From Bacteroidales bacterium (GTDB lineage Bacteria; Bacteroidota; Bacteroidia; Bacteroidales; B18-G4): a DNA stretch of 64,000 nt. Location: positions 1 through 64,000 of the forward strand of contig JAGYLD010000002.1 in NCBI GenBank assembly GCA_018401355.1. The letters run 5' to 3'. Below the pieces are notes generated by a model. It made no database searches. It was not told the DNA's origin and saw only the letters and a list, made by a program, of their open reading frames with translations. Each line of letters starts with the position of its first letter. Position 1 is the stretch's first letter. A program made the translations under genes and the position numbers. Below, piece after piece: positions 14,765 through 43,847 of this stretch.

Positions 14765-17485
14765 ATGAAAAAAATTGTACTATTTGCTGGAACCGCAATT
14801 ATTCTTCTAACACTAACTTTATTAATTTATTTTCACAACAATGATCCCAGGGCTGCTTATGAAAAGCATCTGATGAATGAATATTCCAGGGTTCCCGATC
14901 TTTCTGAAGAAGAAATGAAGTCAATAAAAAAGCCGGATCGCCCCGATCTTGCTGCGTTACAAAACTATTTTATGCTTGCTGATCCGGAACTTGGCTACGT
15001 GCCTGTTGAAAGATTGAAAGAAGGCTATTATGCGGCCGGACGGATCAGGAATGAAAGCATACTTCGTTCCAACCGTTCCTCCATCCAGTGGCAGGCAACC
15101 GGGGCCAATATGGGTGGCCGTACACGAGCCATCATGTATGATCCCAATGCTGCTGGTGGAAATAAAGTTTGGGCTGGAAGTGTTACTGGTGGACTGTGGT
15201 ATAATAATGACATTACAAATGATTTATATCCATGGCTTCCGGTCGATGATTTCTGGGATAACCTTGCAATATCCTCTATAACATACGATCCCAATGATCC
15301 CATGACATTTTATGTTGGTACCGGTGAAGCCGAAACAGCAGTCACCATTTACCGAGAATCCTCCGGTGTGGGTATGGGCATCATGAAATCTACCGATGGC
15401 GGGGAGACATGGGAATTATTGCCCTCCACATCTGATTTTAAATATGTTACAGATGTTGTAGTGCGTGATGAAGGAGGAACAAGTGTTATTTATGCAGGTG
15501 TGGTTTCCGGTATTTATAAAGGAATCATTCACCAAAGCGAACCCAATGATGGACTTTACCGGTCTGATGATGGCGGTTTGACCTGGACTCAGGTACTTCC
15601 TGATATGAGCGGTTTTGATTCCCCATATCCGGTTTCCGATGTGGAAATTGCAGCAGATAACCGGCTTTATGTTGGTACTATGCAGAATCCTGATCTTGAG
15701 GGTGGTGGTGTTATTTTGTACTCCGATGAAGGCACTTCCGGTTCCTGGACCGTATATGACAACCAGGCTATTCTGATCCAGCAACAGTCCTATTATAATA
15801 TTCCGGGAAGAGTGGTTCTGGCATCTGCACCTTCAGATGCTTCAAGGGTTTATGCCCTCTTTGCTGTTGGATATACGGATGGCTTCGTTTATTACCGTGG
15901 CCGGTATATATTGAGAACAGATAACGGCGGACAATTTTGGATCAATCTTCCGCTTCCGGATAATGATTTTGCTACACTTGCATGGCATGCTCTTACAGCA
16001 GGTGTTGACCCGAATGATCCGGATCATATTTACGTTGGTGGTTTGGATGTGTGGAAAAGCGATGATGGCGGATTGCATTGGAGCCATTTATCAGACTGGG
16101 CTTTAATGTATTATGGTGGGGGCGATGACTATGTTCATGCTGACCAGCACGTCTCTCTTTTCAAACCGGGCTCTTCCGATGAAATGCTCTATGGATCCGA
16201 TGGTGGTGTGTTTTATACGGATGAAGCCACTTCTGGTAATCCTGCTTTCCAGGAAAAAAACAAAAGCTATAACAGCCTTCAGTTTTATTCCTGTGCTATT
16301 TCTCCGCTTGCCGGTGAAAATCGATTTATTGGGGGTCTACAGGACAATGGTACGCTTTTTTATGATGATGCCCCCCTTGACATCAATGATATGATAGATG
16401 GCGGTGACGGGGCTTATTGCTTCTGGGACAAGGATGAGCCATTGATTTTTATTACTTCGGTTTACTACAACCGGTATTCAATATTCTATAATGGTTCCTA
16501 TATTAACGATGCAGGGGAATACAGTGGCACATTCATTTGTCCTGCGGATTATGACTATAAGGAAAATATCCTATATGCCAATGCCTGCAGCTTCTTTGGG
16601 TGGAGTGCTGACAGGCTGCTGCGTGTTTCAAATATTCCTTCCAGTCCGTCAAATGCTTATATATCATTAAATACAGGGTCTATTGTACCATTCTCACACG
16701 TAAAATATTCACCTTATTCCCCTGAAGGCAAGTCTACCCTGTTTGTGGGCAGCCAGTCAGGAAGGCTCTTCAGGGTTGAGAATGCTGAATCAAATCCTGT
16801 TGCTGAGGATATAACAGGAAGCAATTTCCCGGTAGCAAATATTTCCTGTGTTGCCATTGGTGCTTCGGAAAATGAACTATTGGTAACTTTTTCCAATTAT
16901 GGTGTTACACAAGTGTTTCAGTCTTCTGACGGCGGACAAACATGGGAAGAAAAGCAGGGCAATTTCCCCGATATACCTGTAAGATGGGCTATTTACCATC
17001 CTGAAAACTCTGAACAGGCTTTACTTGCAACAGAAATTGGAGTATGGTCTACCAACTCCCTTCACCTTGAAGAACCTTTCTGGGAGCCGGCAACAGATGG
17101 ACTCGCCAACGTCAGAACAGACATGATCAAGCTGAGGGAAGCTGATAATACAGTTCTTGCTGCTACACATGGAAGAGGCTTCTTTACTGGAGTATTTGAA
17201 CTGGATCCTTATGTAGGTTTGAACGATCTTACGGAAGAAGAAATAAAAATATTTCCTAACCCTTCAAACGGAGTTTTCAGAATGCAGTTTGATATAAAAA
17301 GCAATGAGCAGATAAATATTGAAGTTTCTGATATTTCCGGGAAACTTTTATACAGGGAACAAGTATCAAATGATCAGGGGCAGTATGATAATACCATTGA
17401 TTTGACAGCCTATCCGAAAGGGATGTATGTGCTGAATGTTGGCAATGGTAAAAATGTCATACATAAAAAAATATTGGTTCAATAA
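14765..17485 (+). CDS. T9SS-secreted Asp-box (BNR/VPS10-like) beta-propeller protein
   Basis: From the ATG at 14765 the protein is about 906 aa. The Met at 14651 would add 38 residues in front of an obvious signal anchor, MKKIVLFAGTAIILLTL. At least five Asp-box motifs of SxDGGxTW type are seen (STDGGETW, SDDGGLTW, TDNGGQFW, SDDGGLHW, SSDGGQTW), which mark one or two sialidase/VPS10-like beta-propellers. The C-terminal 80 residues, starting at IKIFPNPSNG and ending KKILVQ, form a type A sorting domain of the type IX secretion system. It should be exported across the outer membrane and surface-attached or released. Catalytic residues of sialidases are not evident, so a binding or structural role is as likely as hydrolysis. 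Confidence 0.85.
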   Translation: MKKIVLFAGTAIILLTLTLLIYFHNNDPRAAYEKHLMNEYSRVPDLSEEEMKSIKKPDRPDLAALQNYFMLADPELGYVPVERLKEGYYAAGRIRNESILRSNRSSIQWQATGANMGGRTRAIMYDPNAAGGNKVWAGSVTGGLWYNNDITNDLYPWLPVDDFWDNLAISSITYDPNDPMTFYVGTGEAETAVTIYRESSGVGMGIMKSTDGGETWELLPSTSDFKYVTDVVVRDEGGTSVIYAGVVSGIYKGIIHQSEPNDGLYRSDDGGLTWTQVLPDMSGFDSPYPVSDVEIAADNRLYVGTMQNPDLEGGGVILYSDEGTSGSWTVYDNQAILIQQQSYYNIPGRVVLASAPSDASRVYALFAVGYTDGFVYYRGRYILRTDNGGQFWINLPLPDNDFATLAWHALTAGVDPNDPDHIYVGGLDVWKSDDGGLHWSHLSDWALMYYGGGDDYVHADQHVSLFKPGSSDEMLYGSDGGVFYTDEATSGNPAFQEKNKSYNSLQFYSCAISPLAGENRFIGGLQDNGTLFYDDAPLDINDMIDGGDGAYCFWDKDEPLIFITSVYYNRYSIFYNGSYINDAGEYSGTFICPADYDYKENILYANACSFFGWSADRLLRVSNIPSSPSNAYISLNTGSIVPFSHVKYSPYSPEGKSTLFVGSQSGRLFRVENAESNPVAEDITGSNFPVANISCVAIGASENELLVTFSNYGVTQVFQSSDGGQTWEEKQGNFPDIPVRWAIYHPENSEQALLATEIGVWSTNSLHLEEPFWEPATDGLANVRTDMIKLREADNTVLAATHGRGFFTGVFELDPYVGLNDLTEEEIKIFPNPSNGVFRMQFDIKSNEQINIEVSDISGKLLYREQVSNDQGQYDNTIDLTAYPKGMYVLNVGNGKNVIHKKILVQ

Positions 17486-17489
17486 TTTT

Positions 17490-17497
17490 TACATTTG
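17490..17497 (+). promoter_or_regulatory. Candidate -7 element (TACATTTG) of the two-domain acyltransferase gene
   Basis: TACATTTG matches TAnnTTTG and is placed 25 bases before the ATG at 17523, just after the stop codon of the preceding gene. No good -33 TTTG is present at the usual distance. Its position supports 17523 as the start. Confidence 0.3.
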
Positions 17498-17522
17498 TCC
17501 TTATTTACCTGATCATTCAAAC

Positions 17523-19301
17523 ATGGACCTTATTACTGCAAAAGACCTTTTGTCTGCAAATAGGAATTTGAAATACCTTGGAGGAGAGTCTTTTGCAAGG
17601 TTGGTGATGAGGTTGCTCAAGCTGAATGAGCTCAACAGGAATTATAGTCCCCTTTCGGAATTGGAACCCAGGGAGTTCCTGGAAAAGGTTATCGAAAAAC
17701 TGGGTTTTAATTATGAGATCACACAGGAAGACCTGGATAATATACCTAAGGAAGGAGCATTTATTTCTATTCATAATCACCCTTATGGTGGTTTGGATGG
17801 CCTCCTGCTAATGAAATTTCTTGGAGAAGCAAGGCCTGATTTTAAGGTTCTGGTTAACTTTCTTTTAACAAAAATTGCTCCGGTAAAGGATTATTTCCTT
17901 CCGGTCAATCCTTTTGAAACCCATAAAGATGTCAGATCTTCTTTTTCAGGTTTGAAAGATGCTTTTAATCATCTGTCCATAGGTTCACCATTAGGAATTT
18001 ATCCAGCAGGTGAAGTTTCTTCATATCAATTTGATAAAAAGGATATTACTGACAGGAAGTGGCAGGTTTCAGTAATCAAGTTCATAAAAAAGGCACAGGT
18101 TCCTATCATTCCCATTTACTTTGAAGGCAATAACAGCTGTATGTTTCAGCTGTTGGGCATGATTCACCCTACACTCAGGACTGTAAAGCTGCCCTCGGAA
18201 TTATTCAATAAACAGGGCAAGACTGTTAGGGTTAGAATCGGGGCCCCCATCCCGGTTAAGGATCAGGAAATATTTAGTGATATCAATGATTTTAAGAAGT
18301 TTTTGAGGTCCAGGACCTATTCTCTTGGATTGAAATATGAGATACAGAAACAAAAAAAGGTGATTATCCCTCCTTCCGCTCCTGTTATAGATCCGTCTGA
18401 TGAAAGCATGATCAATGATGAGGTAGAATCCATCAGAGAGGAGTTCCTCCTTTTCAGTTTGCAAAATATGAGTGTTTTCTGTGTTCCATCTGCAAGGATT
18501 CCTAACATCTTAAAGGAAATAGGCCGCTTAAGGGAAATAACATACCGGGATGTTGGGGAAGGAACAAACAAAAACATTGATCTGGATCAATTTGATGAAT
18601 ATTACGAGCAGTTGTTTATCTGGGATGATGAAAATAAAAAGATCGTTGGAGGGTACCGTGCAGGTAAAGGCAAAGAGATCTTACCAAAATATGGTATAAA
18701 AGGTTTTTATGTGAATACATTATTCAGGATGAATCCGCAAATGATCCCTGTTCTGGATGAAACCATTGAACTTGGAAGGTCATTTGTAACTAAAGAGTAC
18801 CAGAAAAAAACCTATTCCCTGTTCATGCTGTGGAAAGGGATTCTGTATCTTTTATTAAAGCATCCTGAATACCGCTATCTGATTGGACCTGTTAGTATCA
18901 GCAATGCTTATTCGGACATATCAAAGTCACTGCTTGTTGAATTCATGAAAGCCAATTACTACAATTTTGAACTGGCCGGGCACATTCGTCCAAAAAGGGT
19001 TTTTCGAAAGAAAATCGATCCTGTTATTGACAGGGCTGTGTTTTTGAAACATACAGAAAATGACATCGGAAAACTGGACCGTTTTATTCAGGATTTTGAG
19101 CCCATTTTCAGGACCCCCGTTTTGTTGAAAAAATACATCAACCTGAATGCAGAGATCATTGGATTCAATGTAGATCCCAAATTCAATTACTGCCTGGACG
19201 GTTTAATGATCCTGGACCTATTGGATGTTCCAATGAGTACCATTGAATCGCTCTCGAAAGAACTGGAGGACAAATCCATCCTGGAGAGGTTTAAGAAATA
19301 A
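17523..19301 (+). CDS. Two-domain acyltransferase (PlsC-like plus OlsB-like), candidate amino-acid lipid synthase
   Basis: A 592-aa protein when started at the ATG at 17523; an upstream in-frame Met at 17436 lies inside the previous gene. The N-terminal half is a lysophospholipid-acyltransferase domain with the NHx4D motif (NHPYGGLD, residues 85-92) and a YPAGE motif. The C-terminal half (from about residue 330) has the GGYRAGKG...ELGRSFV pattern of OlsB/hemolysin-type N-acyltransferases of the GNAT superfamily. Fusions of this order (OlsF-type) make ornithine or related amino-acid lipids: the C-terminal part N-acylates the amino acid and the N-terminal part adds the second acyl chain by O-acylation. 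The amino acid used here (ornithine, glycine, serine) is not determined. Confidence 0.75.
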   Translation: MDLITAKDLLSANRNLKYLGGESFARLVMRLLKLNELNRNYSPLSELEPREFLEKVIEKLGFNYEITQEDLDNIPKEGAFISIHNHPYGGLDGLLLMKFLGEARPDFKVLVNFLLTKIAPVKDYFLPVNPFETHKDVRSSFSGLKDAFNHLSIGSPLGIYPAGEVSSYQFDKKDITDRKWQVSVIKFIKKAQVPIIPIYFEGNNSCMFQLLGMIHPTLRTVKLPSELFNKQGKTVRVRIGAPIPVKDQEIFSDINDFKKFLRSRTYSLGLKYEIQKQKKVIIPPSAPVIDPSDESMINDEVESIREEFLLFSLQNMSVFCVPSARIPNILKEIGRLREITYRDVGEGTNKNIDLDQFDEYYEQLFIWDDENKKIVGGYRAGKGKEILPKYGIKGFYVNTLFRMNPQMIPVLDETIELGRSFVTKEYQKKTYSLFMLWKGILYLLLKHPEYRYLIGPVSISNAYSDISKSLLVEFMKANYYNFELAGHIRPKRVFRKKIDPVIDRAVFLKHTENDIGKLDRFIQDFEPIFRTPVLLKKYINLNAEIIGFNVDPKFNYCLDGLMILDLLDVPMSTIESLSKELEDKSILERFKK

Positions 19302-38802: not shown

Positions 38803-40338
38803 ATGGCAATTCTGGGTTCAATAATAAAGAGAGCATATGCTTTACGTAGTATCCCCATTGAAAAGAAGAGGCGTTTTGATGGCTATGCTGCTCAGTTAAA
38901 AGTACTCCGGAAATTGTTGAAGAAAGCTGAATTAAGTGCTTTTGGAGAGAGATATAAGTTCCATGAAATCCTGAAGGAAAAGGATATTGTCAGGGCTTTT
39001 CAGGAACGGGTTCCAACTCATGATTACCAATCAATGTTTCAGCAATGGTGGTATCGTTCTTTAAATGGTGAGGGATTTGTTACGTGGCCAGGTCGGGTAA
39101 AGTATTTTGCCTTGACCTCGGGAACATCCGAATCATCAAGTAAACATATTCCTGTAACAGGCGATATGATCAGGGCTATCAGAAAAGCAAGTATCAGACA
39201 GCTCGTTAGTACTATAAAATATGATTTTCCTCTTGAATTTTATGAAAAGGGAATTTTAATGATCGGAGGGAGTACACACCTCAACTTCAATGGTGCTTAT
39301 TATGAAGGTGATTTATCCGGTATTTCTGCCGGCAACCTGCCATTTTGGTTCCAGCATTTTTACAAGCCGGGAAAGCGAATATCAAGAGAAAGGGAATGGG
39401 AGATCAAGCTTGAGGAGATAGTAAAAAAGGCCAAAAACTGGGATATAGGGATCATTGTTGGTGTTCCTGCCTGGATCCAGATCATTCTTGAGCGCATAAT
39501 AGAGCATTATAATGTAAAAACCATCCACGATATCTGGCCAAATCTTTCAGTTTATGTTCATAGCGGTGTTGCTTTTGAACCCTATGAAAAGAGTTTTTCC
39601 AGGCTTTTTTCAAAGCCGGTGATATACAATGAATCATATCTTGCCTCCGAAGGTTATATTGCTTATCAAAACAGAGTAGACACCAGGGGGATGCAAATGA
39701 TTCTCGATAATGGTTTGTTTTATGAGTTTGTGCCTTTCAACGAGGATAATTTCGATGCAGAAGGCAATTTGTTGCCAAACCATAAAGCGATAACCCTGAG
39801 GGATGTGCAGGAAAACAAAGAGTATGCATTGTTGCTTTCAACATGTTCCGGTGCATGGCGATATCTTATTGGGGATACCATTAAGTTTATTTCAAAGCCC
39901 AGGAATGAAATCCTTATCACAGGCAGGACAAAACATTTTATAAGTATATGTGGTGAGCATTTGTCACAGGATAATATGAACAGGGCCATTAGTAAACTTC
40001 AGAATGAGTTTAATGTAGAGATTCGTGAATGGACGGTAACAGGAATACGTTATGATACTATGTTTGCACATAAATGGTACCTTGGGACTGATGATCCGCT
40101 GGATCCGGAGGCTGCACGTGAAAAGATAGATGAATACCTGAAGATCCTGAATGATGATTACAGGGTAGAGCGAATAGCTGCCATAAAAGACGTTTTTGTT
40201 GAAGTCCTTCCGACAGCAGTTTTCGCCAAATGGATGAAAGATCACGGCAAAGAAGGTGGAGCCAATAAATTTCCAAGGGTATTGAAGAATAAGCAGTTTG
40301 AGGAATGGGAAAAATTTATTAAGGAATTAAATAAATAG
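38803..40338 (+). CDS. GH3 family acyl acid-amido synthetase
   Basis: A 511-aa member of the GH3 (auxin-responsive promoter) branch of adenylate-forming enzymes. The ATP motif FALTSGTSESSSKHIPV lies near residue 105, the NESYLASEG block is in the middle, and the C-terminal GRTKHFISICGEHLS motif carries the catalytic hinge. Plant GH3 enzymes join an acyl acid to an amino acid by an amide bond; the substrates of bacterial members are mostly unknown. It is the first gene of a tight operon with a LysE-type exporter 10 bases downstream and two HdeD-like proteins, which suggests that its product is exported. That link is inference. Confidence 0.9.
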   Translation: MAILGSIIKRAYALRSIPIEKKRRFDGYAAQLKVLRKLLKKAELSAFGERYKFHEILKEKDIVRAFQERVPTHDYQSMFQQWWYRSLNGEGFVTWPGRVKYFALTSGTSESSSKHIPVTGDMIRAIRKASIRQLVSTIKYDFPLEFYEKGILMIGGSTHLNFNGAYYEGDLSGISAGNLPFWFQHFYKPGKRISREREWEIKLEEIVKKAKNWDIGIIVGVPAWIQIILERIIEHYNVKTIHDIWPNLSVYVHSGVAFEPYEKSFSRLFSKPVIYNESYLASEGYIAYQNRVDTRGMQMILDNGLFYEFVPFNEDNFDAEGNLLPNHKAITLRDVQENKEYALLLSTCSGAWRYLIGDTIKFISKPRNEILITGRTKHFISICGEHLSQDNMNRAISKLQNEFNVEIREWTVTGIRYDTMFAHKWYLGTDDPLDPEAAREKIDEYLKILNDDYRVERIAAIKDVFVEVLPTAVFAKWMKDHGKEGGANKFPRVLKNKQFEEWEKFIKELNK

Positions 40339-40348
40339 CAGTTTTTCA

Positions 40349-40972
40349 ATGACACCTGTTTGGGAAGGAGTAATTCTAGGAATCACACTGGCATTTTTTT
40401 TTAGTTTTGGGCCTGCTTTATTTGCCATAATACAGACCAGTATTCACCGAGGATTATGGTCTGGATTTCAACTGGCATTTGGGATTTTCCTCAGTGATGT
40501 GGCTTTTGTGGCTCTTTGTTTCCTTGGAGCAATAAATATTATAAATTCCCAGGAAAGTCTTTTCGGTATCGGTAGTGGGATCATTTTGGTTGTTTTTGGC
40601 TTCGTGACATTTACCAGAAAAGCCCATATGGAAACGGATAAAGATGAAAACAATTCAAGCGCTCCCGGTCCGCTTACATTTATTCTGAAAGGTTTTTTTC
40701 TGAATATAGCCAATCCATTCGTATGGTTTTTCTGGATGGGAGTAGTAGTTACAGTAACTGCCAATTACAAAGGTGATACGCAATCACTGCTTTTGTTTTT
40801 TGCGGGTACCCTCCTGACTGTCCTCGTAACAGATTTGTTAAAATGTTTTGGTTCTTTTCAAATAAAGAAGTATCTTACACCAAAATTTATCCAGTGGATC
40901 AATAAGATTGCTGGAATTGGGCTGGTTTTGTTTGGAATATATCTTATTATTAGAACCATTATAGAATTTTAG
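40349..40972 (+). CDS. LysE family exporter
   Basis: A 207-aa inner-membrane protein with six predicted helices and the LysE/RhtB start pattern (GVILGITLAFFFSFGPALFAIIQTSIHRG, where the GP motif is characteristic). The family exports amino acids and small derivatives. It lies 10 bases after GH3 and 2 bases before an HdeD-like gene, so all four are likely co-transcribed. The substrate here may be a GH3-made conjugate or the amino acid itself; neither is shown. Confidence 0.88.
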   Translation: MTPVWEGVILGITLAFFFSFGPALFAIIQTSIHRGLWSGFQLAFGIFLSDVAFVALCFLGAINIINSQESLFGIGSGIILVVFGFVTFTRKAHMETDKDENNSSAPGPLTFILKGFFLNIANPFVWFFWMGVVVTVTANYKGDTQSLLLFFAGTLLTVLVTDLLKCFGSFQIKKYLTPKFIQWINKIAGIGLVLFGIYLIIRTIIEF

Positions 40973-40974
40973 TT

Positions 40975-41523
40975 ATGTTACAAGAATTCAGCAAAAATTG
41001 GTGGTTAATGACCATTAATGGTATACTTGCCATCATATTGGGTGTCTTTGCAATAATCATACCCAATGAAACCATAGTAGTTATTGCCAGGTACTTCGGA
41101 TTAATTGTAATGATAGGGGGTATAATACTTCTTATCGGAGCTGTTAACAACCTTCAAAAAAAGCGGCCATATGCGGTCTTGTTGACTGAGGCCATAGTCA
41201 GCATTATTATTGGGATCATCATTCTTATTTTTACAAAGCAAACACTTGAATTGTTCGTTATTTTGCTTGGAATTTGGGCCATCATCCTTGGGATATTGCA
41301 ACTTGCATTGCTGGCCAGTATTAAGGATGAGATCACTGGTAAGACAATGCTATTGATAAATGGACTTATTACATTAGTTTTTGGGATACTCATATTTTTT
41401 AATCCATTTACCGCAGTAAAGGCATTTACAATTATAATTGGATTGATTGCTTTGCTTTTTGGCATTGTAATGATTTATTATTCTGTTATACTAAAGAAAT
41501 ATGTTAACCAAAATAATCCATAA
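40975..41523 (+). CDS. HdeD family (DUF308) membrane protein, first copy
   Basis: A 182-aa protein with six predicted helices arranged as three related pairs, the DUF308/HdeD pattern (KNWWLMTINGILAIILGVFA then GIWAIILGILQL). HdeD is linked to acid resistance in enterobacteria, but the family's biochemical role is unclear. It is a paralogue of the next gene, 3 bases downstream, and belongs to the GH3-LysE operon. Confidence 0.87.
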   Translation: MLQEFSKNWWLMTINGILAIILGVFAIIIPNETIVVIARYFGLIVMIGGIILLIGAVNNLQKKRPYAVLLTEAIVSIIIGIIILIFTKQTLELFVILLGIWAIILGILQLALLASIKDEITGKTMLLINGLITLVFGILIFFNPFTAVKAFTIIIGLIALLFGIVMIYYSVILKKYVNQNNP

Positions 41524-41526
41524 GTT

Positions 41527-42057
41527 ATGGCAGGAAAAAAATATAAGAATTGGTGGCTTTTAACGCTTAAAGGTCTATTTGCAATCATCTTTGGAATTTT
41601 TGCATTGTTTGTACCCAATGTTACGCTGACTGTTTTGATGGAATATTTTGGTATTCTGGTATTGTTGAGTGGATTGTTCCTTATCATTGGATCATTCACC
41701 CACATGAAAAGCAACAGGCATTGGACAAGCTGGCTTTTTGAAGGTATCCTGGATATTATTGTTGGTGCTGTGATCATGCTTTATCCCACACTGACAATTG
41801 ATCTTTTTATCATCCTCATGGGTATATGGGCCATTACTGTTGGTTTTACTCAATTGTTTAATACTTTTAATGCGCATAAGGCCGGGCGTGCCAAGTGGTT
41901 AATGCTGCTTAACGCCCTGGTGGTTATTGTTTTTGGCCTGGTATTGTTTATCAATCCAACTGAATCCCAAATGGCCCTTACATATCTTGTTGGAGCGTTT
42001 TCATTGGTTTTCGGGCTTCTGATCACCATTTATTCATTTCAGTTGCAAAAACTGTAA
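41527..42057 (+). CDS. HdeD family (DUF308) membrane protein, second copy
   Basis: A 176-aa protein aligning along its whole length with the preceding one (KNWWLLTLKGLFAIIFGIFA and GIWAITVGFTQL at equivalent positions). The pair is therefore a tandem duplication that has diverged considerably. It has six predicted helices and is the last gene of the operon. The two may form a heteromeric membrane complex; this is inference. Confidence 0.87.
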   Translation: MAGKKYKNWWLLTLKGLFAIIFGIFALFVPNVTLTVLMEYFGILVLLSGLFLIIGSFTHMKSNRHWTSWLFEGILDIIVGAVIMLYPTLTIDLFIILMGIWAITVGFTQLFNTFNAHKAGRAKWLMLLNALVVIVFGLVLFINPTESQMALTYLVGAFSLVFGLLITIYSFQLQKL

Positions 42058-42083: not shown

Positions 42084-42110
42084 AAAAAACCCGAATCAAA
42101 GATCTTCGGG
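42084..42110 (-). terminator. Intrinsic terminator overlapping the recJ stop codon
   Basis: On the minus strand CCCGAA-N9-TTCGGG is followed at once by six Ts. The stop codon of recJ lies inside the 9-base loop, so the hairpin uses the last codons of the gene. Confidence 0.7.
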
Positions 42111-43847
42111 AAAGATTATATCTTTAATATTGAGTTGAAGGTATCTTTTAGCATTCCATTCATTTTCTTCGATGTGGTAACAAATGCTGAATGGCTTACC
42201 GGAAACAATCTTATCAAAATGATATCCCTGTTGAAAGGCGATGGCTGAGTATGGAAAGCCAGAAATATCCGGATGGACAACTTCTAGTTTTAAATGATTT
42301 TTGCCTACCACCCTGGAATTACCGGTATCGATAACCCTGTCGGTTTGAAATACCGGCGGCATATTTCCTGGACCGAAAGGTGCCAATTGTTTTAAGATCC
42401 TGAAAAACTTTGTATTGATTTCTTTCAGGATGATGTTGGCATCTATTTCAATTTCCGGAACAAACATTGACTCTGTGGTGTGTTCTTTAACATACTCTTC
42501 AAATCTATCCTTGAATGTTTGAAGGTTTTCAGGCTTCAGGGAAAGGCCAGCTGCATATTTATGTCCGCCAAAGTGCTCCAGAAGTTCACTGCAAGAGTCG
42601 ATGGCATCATATACATCAAAGTCTTTTATTGACCTGGCAGATCCGGTTACTAATCCATTGGATTGTGTCAGGACAATGGTAGGCCGGTAATAATAATCTG
42701 TTAGCCTGGAAGCAACGATTCCAATAACACCTTTATGCCAATCTTTATTGAATACAACAGTACTTTTGCTGTTTTTAAGAGAGGGTTCTGATTGAATAAA
42801 TTCCAAAGCTGCCTGAGTGGCATTGAGATCCAGGCTTTTTCTCTCAATATTCAGGTCATTGATCTGATCTGCAAGTTCTAATGCTTTAGCAAAATCCGTA
42901 GTGATCAGCAATTCTACCGAGTTTTTTGCATTTTCTATTCGTCCGGCAGCATTGATGCGAGGTCCGACAAGAAAAACAAGGTCACTTATAGAAATTTCCC
43001 TGTTGAACTGAAAGGGCCCTTTGGCACCTGCAATACGTTTGATCCCTGAATATTGGAATATGGCTTCAAATCCTGGCCTAGGTTTTTTATTGATGAGTTT
43101 TAATCCATAATAGGCCAAAATCCGGTTCTCTCCGATGATGGGGACAATATCTGCAGCAATGCTGACTACAACTAAATCGAGGTAGGAATTTAATTTATCA
43201 GCGGAAATGTTATATTTTAAAGAATAAGCCTGTATCAGCTTAAACCCAACACCGCAGCCGGATAATTCTTTAAAGGGATAGTTGCAATCGGGTCTTTTGG
43301 GATCTAAAACTGCACAGGCATCAGGAATTTTGTCACTGGGCCTGTGATGATCACAAATAATAAAATCTACTCCATTTTCCTTTGCATAAGATATTTTTTC
43401 TACGGCCTTAATGCCGCAATCAAGGACTATAATCAAGGAAAAATTATTCTCAATGGAAAAATCTATCCCTTTGTAAGATATGCCATATCCTTCAGCATAC
43501 CTGTCAGGAATATAGAAATCGATGTTCGGGTAAATGGATCTTAAAAAAGTATATACCAGTGCAACAGCTGTGGTGCCATCAACATCATAGTCGCCGTATA
43601 CAAGAATCTTTTCCTCTTTGTCGATGGCTGATTTGATCCTGTCAACGGCCAGGTTCATATCTTTCATCAGAAAAGGGTCGTGTAAATCACTTAAGGAAGG
43701 CCTGAAAAACGATTTTGCCTCCTCGAAGGTTGAAACCCCCCTCTGAACAAGTAAGTTGGCTAATTGACGATCAATGTTCAACGAAAGGGCCAGATTCTCA
43801 ACCGTAGCATTATCGCCTTGTTTCTTTAGGACCCATCGTTTTTTCAT
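42096..43847 (-). CDS. recJ: Single-stranded-DNA-specific exonuclease RecJ
   Basis: A 583-aa protein of the DHH phosphoesterase family. Motif I is YGDYDVDGTTA (near residue 83), the DHH motif is ICDHHRPSD (near 165), and the C-terminal DHHA1 block is FGGHKYAAGLS, followed by an OB-fold. RecJ degrades single-stranded DNA 5' to 3' in recombination and mismatch or base-excision repair. All catalytic motifs are present and the length is normal. It is the last gene of the long minus-strand stretch, with its terminator at the stop codon. Confidence 0.96.
   Translation of the reverse strand: MKKRWVLKKQGDNATVENLALSLNIDRQLANLLVQRGVSTFEEAKSFFRPSLSDLHDPFLMKDMNLAVDRIKSAIDKEEKILVYGDYDVDGTTAVALVYTFLRSIYPNIDFYIPDRYAEGYGISYKGIDFSIENNFSLIIVLDCGIKAVEKISYAKENGVDFIICDHHRPSDKIPDACAVLDPKRPDCNYPFKELSGCGVGFKLIQAYSLKYNISADKLNSYLDLVVVSIAADIVPIIGENRILAYYGLKLINKKPRPGFEAIFQYSGIKRIAGAKGPFQFNREISISDLVFLVGPRINAAGRIENAKNSVELLITTDFAKALELADQINDLNIERKSLDLNATQAALEFIQSEPSLKNSKSTVVFNKDWHKGVIGIVASRLTDYYYRPTIVLTQSNGLVTGSARSIKDFDVYDAIDSCSELLEHFGGHKYAAGLSLKPENLQTFKDRFEEYVKEHTTESMFVPEIEIDANIILKEINTKFFRILKQLAPFGPGNMPPVFQTDRVIDTGNSRVVGKNHLKLEVVHPDISGFPYSAIAFQQGYHFDKIVSGKPFSICYHIEENEWNAKRYLQLNIKDIIFPEDL

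What the first reader, a model, noticed from the sequence alone, without database searches (positions are those of the whole stretch)
38803..42057. GH3 amido synthetase, LysE exporter and two HdeD paralogues in one operon
The four genes are separated by 10, 2 and 3 bases. GH3 enzymes form acyl-amino acid conjugates and LysE proteins export amino acids or derivatives. The arrangement suggests production and export of an N-acyl amino acid or a similar signal or toxin, with the DUF308 pair as membrane accessories. I know of no described system of this composition.
Basis: partly seen in the sequence, partly recalled or inferred. Interest (0 to 1): 0.62.

Follow-up and report, generated by a model that had tools for sequence, protein, structure and literature searches.

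The report
GH3 acyl-amino-acid synthetase with LysE exporter
A conserved two-gene unit in uncultured Bacteroidales pairs an enzyme that probably joins a fatty acid to an amino acid with a small membrane exporter, and its distribution suggests that it stands in for the known ornithine-lipid pathway and that the exporter may move such lipids across the membrane.

Summary
The four genes are real and at the stated coordinates, with gaps of 10, 2 and 3 bases. The four-gene composition is a local elaboration. The conserved unit is GH3-LysE: LysE lies within 500 nt downstream of GH3 in 76 of 77 related MAG loci, but one or two DUF308 genes in only 18 of 66. The GH3 has the plant GH3 fold and all three nucleotide-binding motifs, including the serine shown to be essential in OlsH, a 2025 planctomycete GH3-type N-acyl-ornithine synthetase. 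It falls well below the OlsH cut-off, so it is a distinct clade.

Three results bear on function. (1) A second, divergent LysE subfamily (LysE2) lies beside OlsF, the unrelated ornithine-lipid synthase, in 23 of 82 OlsF-bearing genomes of the order. (2) The LysE-linked GH3 and OlsF rarely co-occur: 7 of 247 genomes against 22 expected. (3) Only 3 of 66 such GH3 genomes carry LysE2, and in those three no LysE is found beside the GH3.

My reading: GH3 makes an N-acyl amino acid, most likely an aminolipid or its lyso form, and LysE translocates it. A secreted signal or toxin is not supported. Substrates, product and transport are inferred, and the window's own genome also carries OlsF.

The parts
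38803..40338 (+). GH3-fold acyl acid amido synthetase ('GH3A1' here); nucleotide-binding motifs T105SGTSESSSK114, S282-E283, G350AWRYLIGD358
   Evidence: motif comparison with OlsH motifs in PMC12493201
40349..40972 (+). LysE/RhtB-type translocator ('LysE1'); the only LysE gene found in the genome bin
40975..41523 (+). DUF308 membrane protein a; optional accessory
41527..42057 (+). DUF308 membrane protein b, paralogue of a; optional accessory
17436..19301 (+). OlsF-like bifunctional aminolipid synthase; not in the operon, but the enzyme that GH3A1 appears to replace in related genomes
   Evidence: (NF052615 418 bits, cut-off 620)

Best explanation
The core is a two-gene aminolipid module. GH3A1 uses ATP to adenylate a free carboxylic acid, most likely a fatty acid, and transfers the acyl group to the alpha-amine of an amino acid, giving an N-acyl amino acid (a lyso-aminolipid of the ornithine-lipid type). 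LysE1 translocates this product, or its O-acylated form, across the inner membrane. DUF308 proteins are lineage-specific membrane accessories. Shown here: gene content, fold, motifs, conservation of the pair, the separate OlsF-LysE2 pairing, and the near-exclusive distributions of GH3A1 with OlsF and with LysE2. Inferred: substrates, product, direction of transport and the role of DUF308.
For: GH3 fold: the nearest solved structures are all plant GH3 enzymes (JAR1 4epl, E 1e-19). Motif residues are invariant or nearly so in 26 homologues, including S106, which corresponds to S115 of OlsH, shown to be essential; OlsH makes N-acyl ornithine from fatty acid, ATP and ornithine (PMC12493201). LysE follows GH3 in 76 of 77 MAG loci, median gap 10 nt and often overlapping. 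In the tree, LysE adjacency marks one GH3 clade (36 of 46 rows, 37) and is absent from its sister clade (0 of 17) and from GH3B. A divergent LysE subfamily lies next to OlsF in 23 of 82 OlsF genomes in 15 families, downstream in 16 and upstream in 7. Over 247 genomes GH3A1 and OlsF co-occur in 7 against 22 expected (p 1.5e-6; by family p 0.005). GH3A1 and LysE2 co-occur in 3 against 35 expected; in those three no LysE is found beside the GH3. The LysE superfamily includes the GAP family, assigned to peptidoglycolipid transport (PMC4608589).
Against: The window's own genome carries both GH3A1 and an OlsF-like protein, so replacement is not strict. The paralogue GH3B, not GH3A1, is closer to OlsH (405 against 322 bits). 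No O-acyltransferase (OlsI-like) is in the operon. LysE2 also occurs in many genomes with neither OlsF nor GH3A1. RhtB-type LysE proteins with known substrates export free amino acids. Co-occurrence counts are not corrected for phylogeny; the family-level test only softens this. One relative (G005, L213) keeps LysE and DUF308 with no GH3 beside them.
Confidence: 0.5

Rival explanations
1. Conjugation and disposal: GH3A1 joins small carboxylic acids (such as phenylacetate, indoleacetate or benzoate) to an amino acid, as plant GH3 enzymes do, and LysE exports the soluble conjugate.
For: The nearest solved structures are plant hormone-conjugating GH3s and then PaaK phenylacetate-CoA ligases. RhtB-type LysE proteins carry small amino acids, so an amino acid conjugate is a plausible cargo.
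Against: It does not explain the LysE2-OlsF pairing or the near exclusion of OlsF and LysE2 by GH3A1. No obvious aromatic-acid catabolic genes were seen among the recurrent neighbours. The only characterised bacterial GH3 found in the held literature uses long fatty acids (PMC12493201).
Confidence: 0.2
2. LysE is a plain amino acid exporter (ornithine, lysine or similar) that balances the pool of the amino acid used by the adjacent N-acyl synthase; no lipid is transported.
For: The best NCBIfam model is the RhtB homoserine/threonine efflux subfamily, below cut-off (62 of 184 bits). It would fit both GH3 and OlsF neighbourhoods through a shared amino acid. LysE persisting without GH3 at one locus (L213) is compatible with it.
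Against: Exporting the substrate of the adjacent biosynthetic enzyme is counter-intuitive, and it gives no reason for the tight 76-of-77 coupling to the synthase.
Confidence: 0.2
3. A secreted N-acyl amino acid signal or toxin.
For: Synthetase plus exporter is compatible with it.
Against: No regulator, receptor, immunity or modification gene was recognised as recurrent at the locus; the distribution tracks aminolipid synthase and LysE content; no match to defence-system models.
Confidence: 0.08

Closest known systems
OlsH-OlsI ornithine lipid pathway of Singulisphaera acidiphila (PMC12493201)
   Same: GH3-fold enzyme with the same three motifs and the essential motif-1 serine; proposed ATP-dependent N-acylation of an amino acid
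   Different: Scores 322 against the 620-bit OlsH cut-off; no OlsI or OlsG in the operon; LysE and DUF308 instead
Plant GH3 acyl acid amido synthetases (JAR1/AtGH3.11 and others)
   Same: Fold and nucleotide-binding motifs
   Different: About 14% identity in the structural alignment; substrate probably not a phytohormone
OlsF ornithine lipid synthase with an adjacent LysE in Bacteroidales (seen here)
   Same: N-acyl amino acid synthase next to a LysE-family gene; near-exclusive distribution with GH3A1
   Different: Unrelated acyltransferase enzyme; LysE2 is a different subfamily from LysE1 (23% identity to the window protein for the member compared)
LysE/RhtB amino acid exporters and the GAP peptidoglycolipid family of the LysE superfamily (PMC4608589)
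   Same: PF01810 translocator of 207 aa
   Different: Substrate unknown; below the RhtB subfamily cut-off; not shown to be GAP

Membership tests
GH3 acyl acid amido synthetase | GH3 N-terminal, middle and C-terminal domains over Pfam cut-off | tested here: met
GH3 acyl acid amido synthetase | GH3 fold | tested here: met
   AF2 model (mean pLDDT 75), best 25 PDB matches all plant GH3; TM about 0.5-0.6
GH3 acyl acid amido synthetase | three nucleotide-binding motifs | tested here: met
   T105SGTSESSSK, S282-E283, G350AWRYLIGD; core residues conserved in 26 rows against motifs quoted
GH3 acyl acid amido synthetase | ATP-dependent amide formation | not testable with these tools
   needs an enzyme assay
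OlsH (lyso-ornithine lipid synthetase) | NCBIfam NF052613 equivalog cut-off, 620 bits | tested here: not met
   322 bits
OlsH (lyso-ornithine lipid synthetase) | operon with OlsI alpha/beta-hydrolase (as in all planctomycete cases) | tested here: not met
   no such gene in the window operon
LysE-type translocator | PF01810 over cut-off | tested here: met
   89 bits, cut-off 25.6
RhtB homoserine/threonine exporter | TIGR00949 cut-off, 184 bits | tested here: not met
   62 bits
HdeD acid-resistance protein | NF007577 cut-off, 189 bits | tested here: not met
   25 and 31 bits; only DUF308 membership is met
OlsF (window 17436-19301) | NF052615 cut-off, 620 bits, full-length match | tested here: inconclusive
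   full-length match but 418 bits

The most novel reading that the evidence does not exclude
LysE-family proteins are the inner-membrane translocators of N-acyl amino acid lipids in Bacteroidales, paired with two unrelated synthases (GH3A1 and OlsF), and GH3A1-LysE1 is an alternative to the OlsF route across the order.
Probability: 0.28. Interest if true: 0.78.

Novelty: new variant of a known kind. Interest (0 to 1): 0.55.

Why it matters
Aminolipids are important phosphorus-free membrane lipids, and my search of the held literature turned up no described protein that moves them across the inner membrane. A conserved synthase-LysE pairing, seen with two unrelated synthases, gives a testable candidate. 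It would also assign a function to a GH3 clade found across Bacteroidales and beyond, and show that OlsF presence alone underestimates aminolipid capacity.

Tried and rejected
DUF308 as core component: rejected (18 of 66 loci). Membership in OlsH, RhtB or HdeD: cut-offs not met. Defence system: no PADLOC match. Promoter and terminator scan of the operon: no more hits than shuffles, uninformative. LysE structure against PDB: no match at E <= 0.001; best is CcdA (5vkv, E 0.04), whose placement in the DsbD family of the LysE superfamily is from my own knowledge. LysE profile against PDB sequences: nothing. Literature for GH3 with LysE, OlsF with LysE, and ornithine lipid with flippase: no paper whose title or listed abstract describes such a link; the individual hits were not all read. 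A recurrent EEP-family gene divergent from GH3 in 31 of 65 loci was considered as a component; not detected in the window's genome by protein search (no positive control). First alignment and family calls failed on strand and coordinate errors and were repeated.

Full report
Observation. Domain assignments hold. The following gene, RecJ-like at 42096-43847, is convergent. The genome is an 83% complete bin of 205 contigs. The named records that share this GH3 clade are nearly all Bacteroidales or Bacteroidetes MAGs. The operon holds the only LysE gene and the only DUF308 genes found in the bin.

What is conserved. In 30 of 99 genomes (the window's own and its relatives) the LysE-linked type of GH3 (GH3A1) is present (list). 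LysE is the next gene in most of their loci (one apparent exception, L048, was an ORF-calling artefact corrected). In 80 MAG loci from the named genome collection, LysE starts within 500 nt downstream in 76 of the 77 with room, median gap 10 nt; in the one exception (L133) it starts slightly further on. DUF308 follows in 18 of 66, RecJ in 25 of 66, HemW lies upstream in 11 of 65, and a divergent EEP-family gene in 31 of 65. The two collections overlap in part, so searches are not fully independent. The unit is therefore GH3-LysE, with DUF308 as an optional addition.

Phylogeny. A maximum-likelihood tree of 80 GH3 proteins separates GH3B (beside IspE in the window's genome and its relatives), a small further clade, and GH3A. 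GH3A splits into A1 (36 of 46 rows LysE-adjacent, 37 after correction) and A2 (0 of 17), which often has a convergent gene for a GHELGH metalloprotease-like protein. This was a quick tree with some long branches; one LysE-adjacent row (L184) falls outside A1 on such a branch. A1 reaches beyond the order within the class, where LysE adjacency is less complete.

Enzyme. The GH3A1 model matches plant GH3 structures best. The motifs correspond to those of OlsH; S106 corresponds to the essential S115. NCBIfam's nearest model is OlsH, but at 322 bits against a 620 cut-off; GH3B scores 405. I file GH3A1 as a GH3 enzyme, not as OlsH.

Link to aminolipids. PF13444 marks OlsF-like (about 600 aa) and GlsB-like (about 320 aa) proteins. 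Comparing coordinates showed LysE genes beside OlsF, confirmed by gene maps. With a profile of that LysE subfamily (A4), 23 of 82 OlsF genomes in 15 families have it adjacent on the same strand; by the listed distances LysE is downstream in 16 and upstream in 7. LysE2 is present in 131 of 247 genomes and adjacent to OlsF in a minority, so OlsF is not its only context. 'OlsF' here rests on domain and length; the window's copy matches the OlsF model full-length but below its cut-off.

Exclusion. In the same 247 genomes GH3A1 (66) and OlsF (82) co-occur in 7, expected 22 (p 1.5e-6); counted by family, 7 of 109 (p 0.005). GH3A1 and LysE2 co-occur in 3, expected 35 (p 1e-22). In these three (G073, G443, G460) no LysE was found beside the GH3 (L059, L222, L223; the L223 GH3 is cut at its start by a contig end, its downstream side is visible). 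The near-universal paralogue GH3B does not appear to exclude OlsF, judged by eye from the lists and not by a scripted test. These p-values assume independent genomes, which they are not. The sets were transcribed from tool output with score cut-offs I chose after seeing the gap in scores.

Interpretation. Two unrelated N-acyl amino acid synthase types each neighbour LysE-family genes, and their genomes tend to hold one combination or the other. The simplest account is a shared need to move an N-acyl amino acid lipid. The LysE superfamily includes a family assigned to peptidoglycolipid transport (PMC4608589). Against strict replacement, the window's own genome has an OlsF-like gene at 17436-19301, as do six others of the 66. 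Rivals are amino acid export by LysE and conjugation of small acids.

Order of analysis. The OlsF link was noticed while testing whether GH3A1 complements OlsF in 99 genomes, where the exclusion was only suggestive (one-sided p 0.054; 0.01 without the window's family). It was then tested on 247 genomes that include many of the same ones, so the larger test is an extension and not an independent replication.

Noticed in passing
window 17436-19301: OlsF-like bifunctional aminolipid synthase about 20 kb from the operon; a GlsB-like gene is on contig C13 of the same genome.
   Followed up: partly
L202-L208: OlsF with an adjacent LysE-family gene in seven Bacteroidales genomes, in both gene orders.
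   Followed up: yes
L213 (G005): Same-family locus with EEP, LysE1 and DUF308 but no GH3 between EEP and LysE: apparent loss of GH3 alone.
   Followed up: partly
L035, L037, L041, L044 and others: A probably membrane-anchored endonuclease/exonuclease/phosphatase-family protein is divergent from GH3 in 31 of 65 loci; role unknown.
   Followed up: partly
L172, L175-L183: The A2 clade of GH3, without LysE, often has a convergent gene for a protein with a GHELGH metalloprotease-like motif and no Pfam match (L177 tested).
   Followed up: partly
G046:C29 and G522:C141: LysE2 beside OlsF carries one in-frame stop in two genomes of family f39; possible decay or sequencing error.
   Followed up: no
L230, L231 (family f165): OlsF is followed by a second short OlsF-like ORF, perhaps a split gene.
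   Followed up: no
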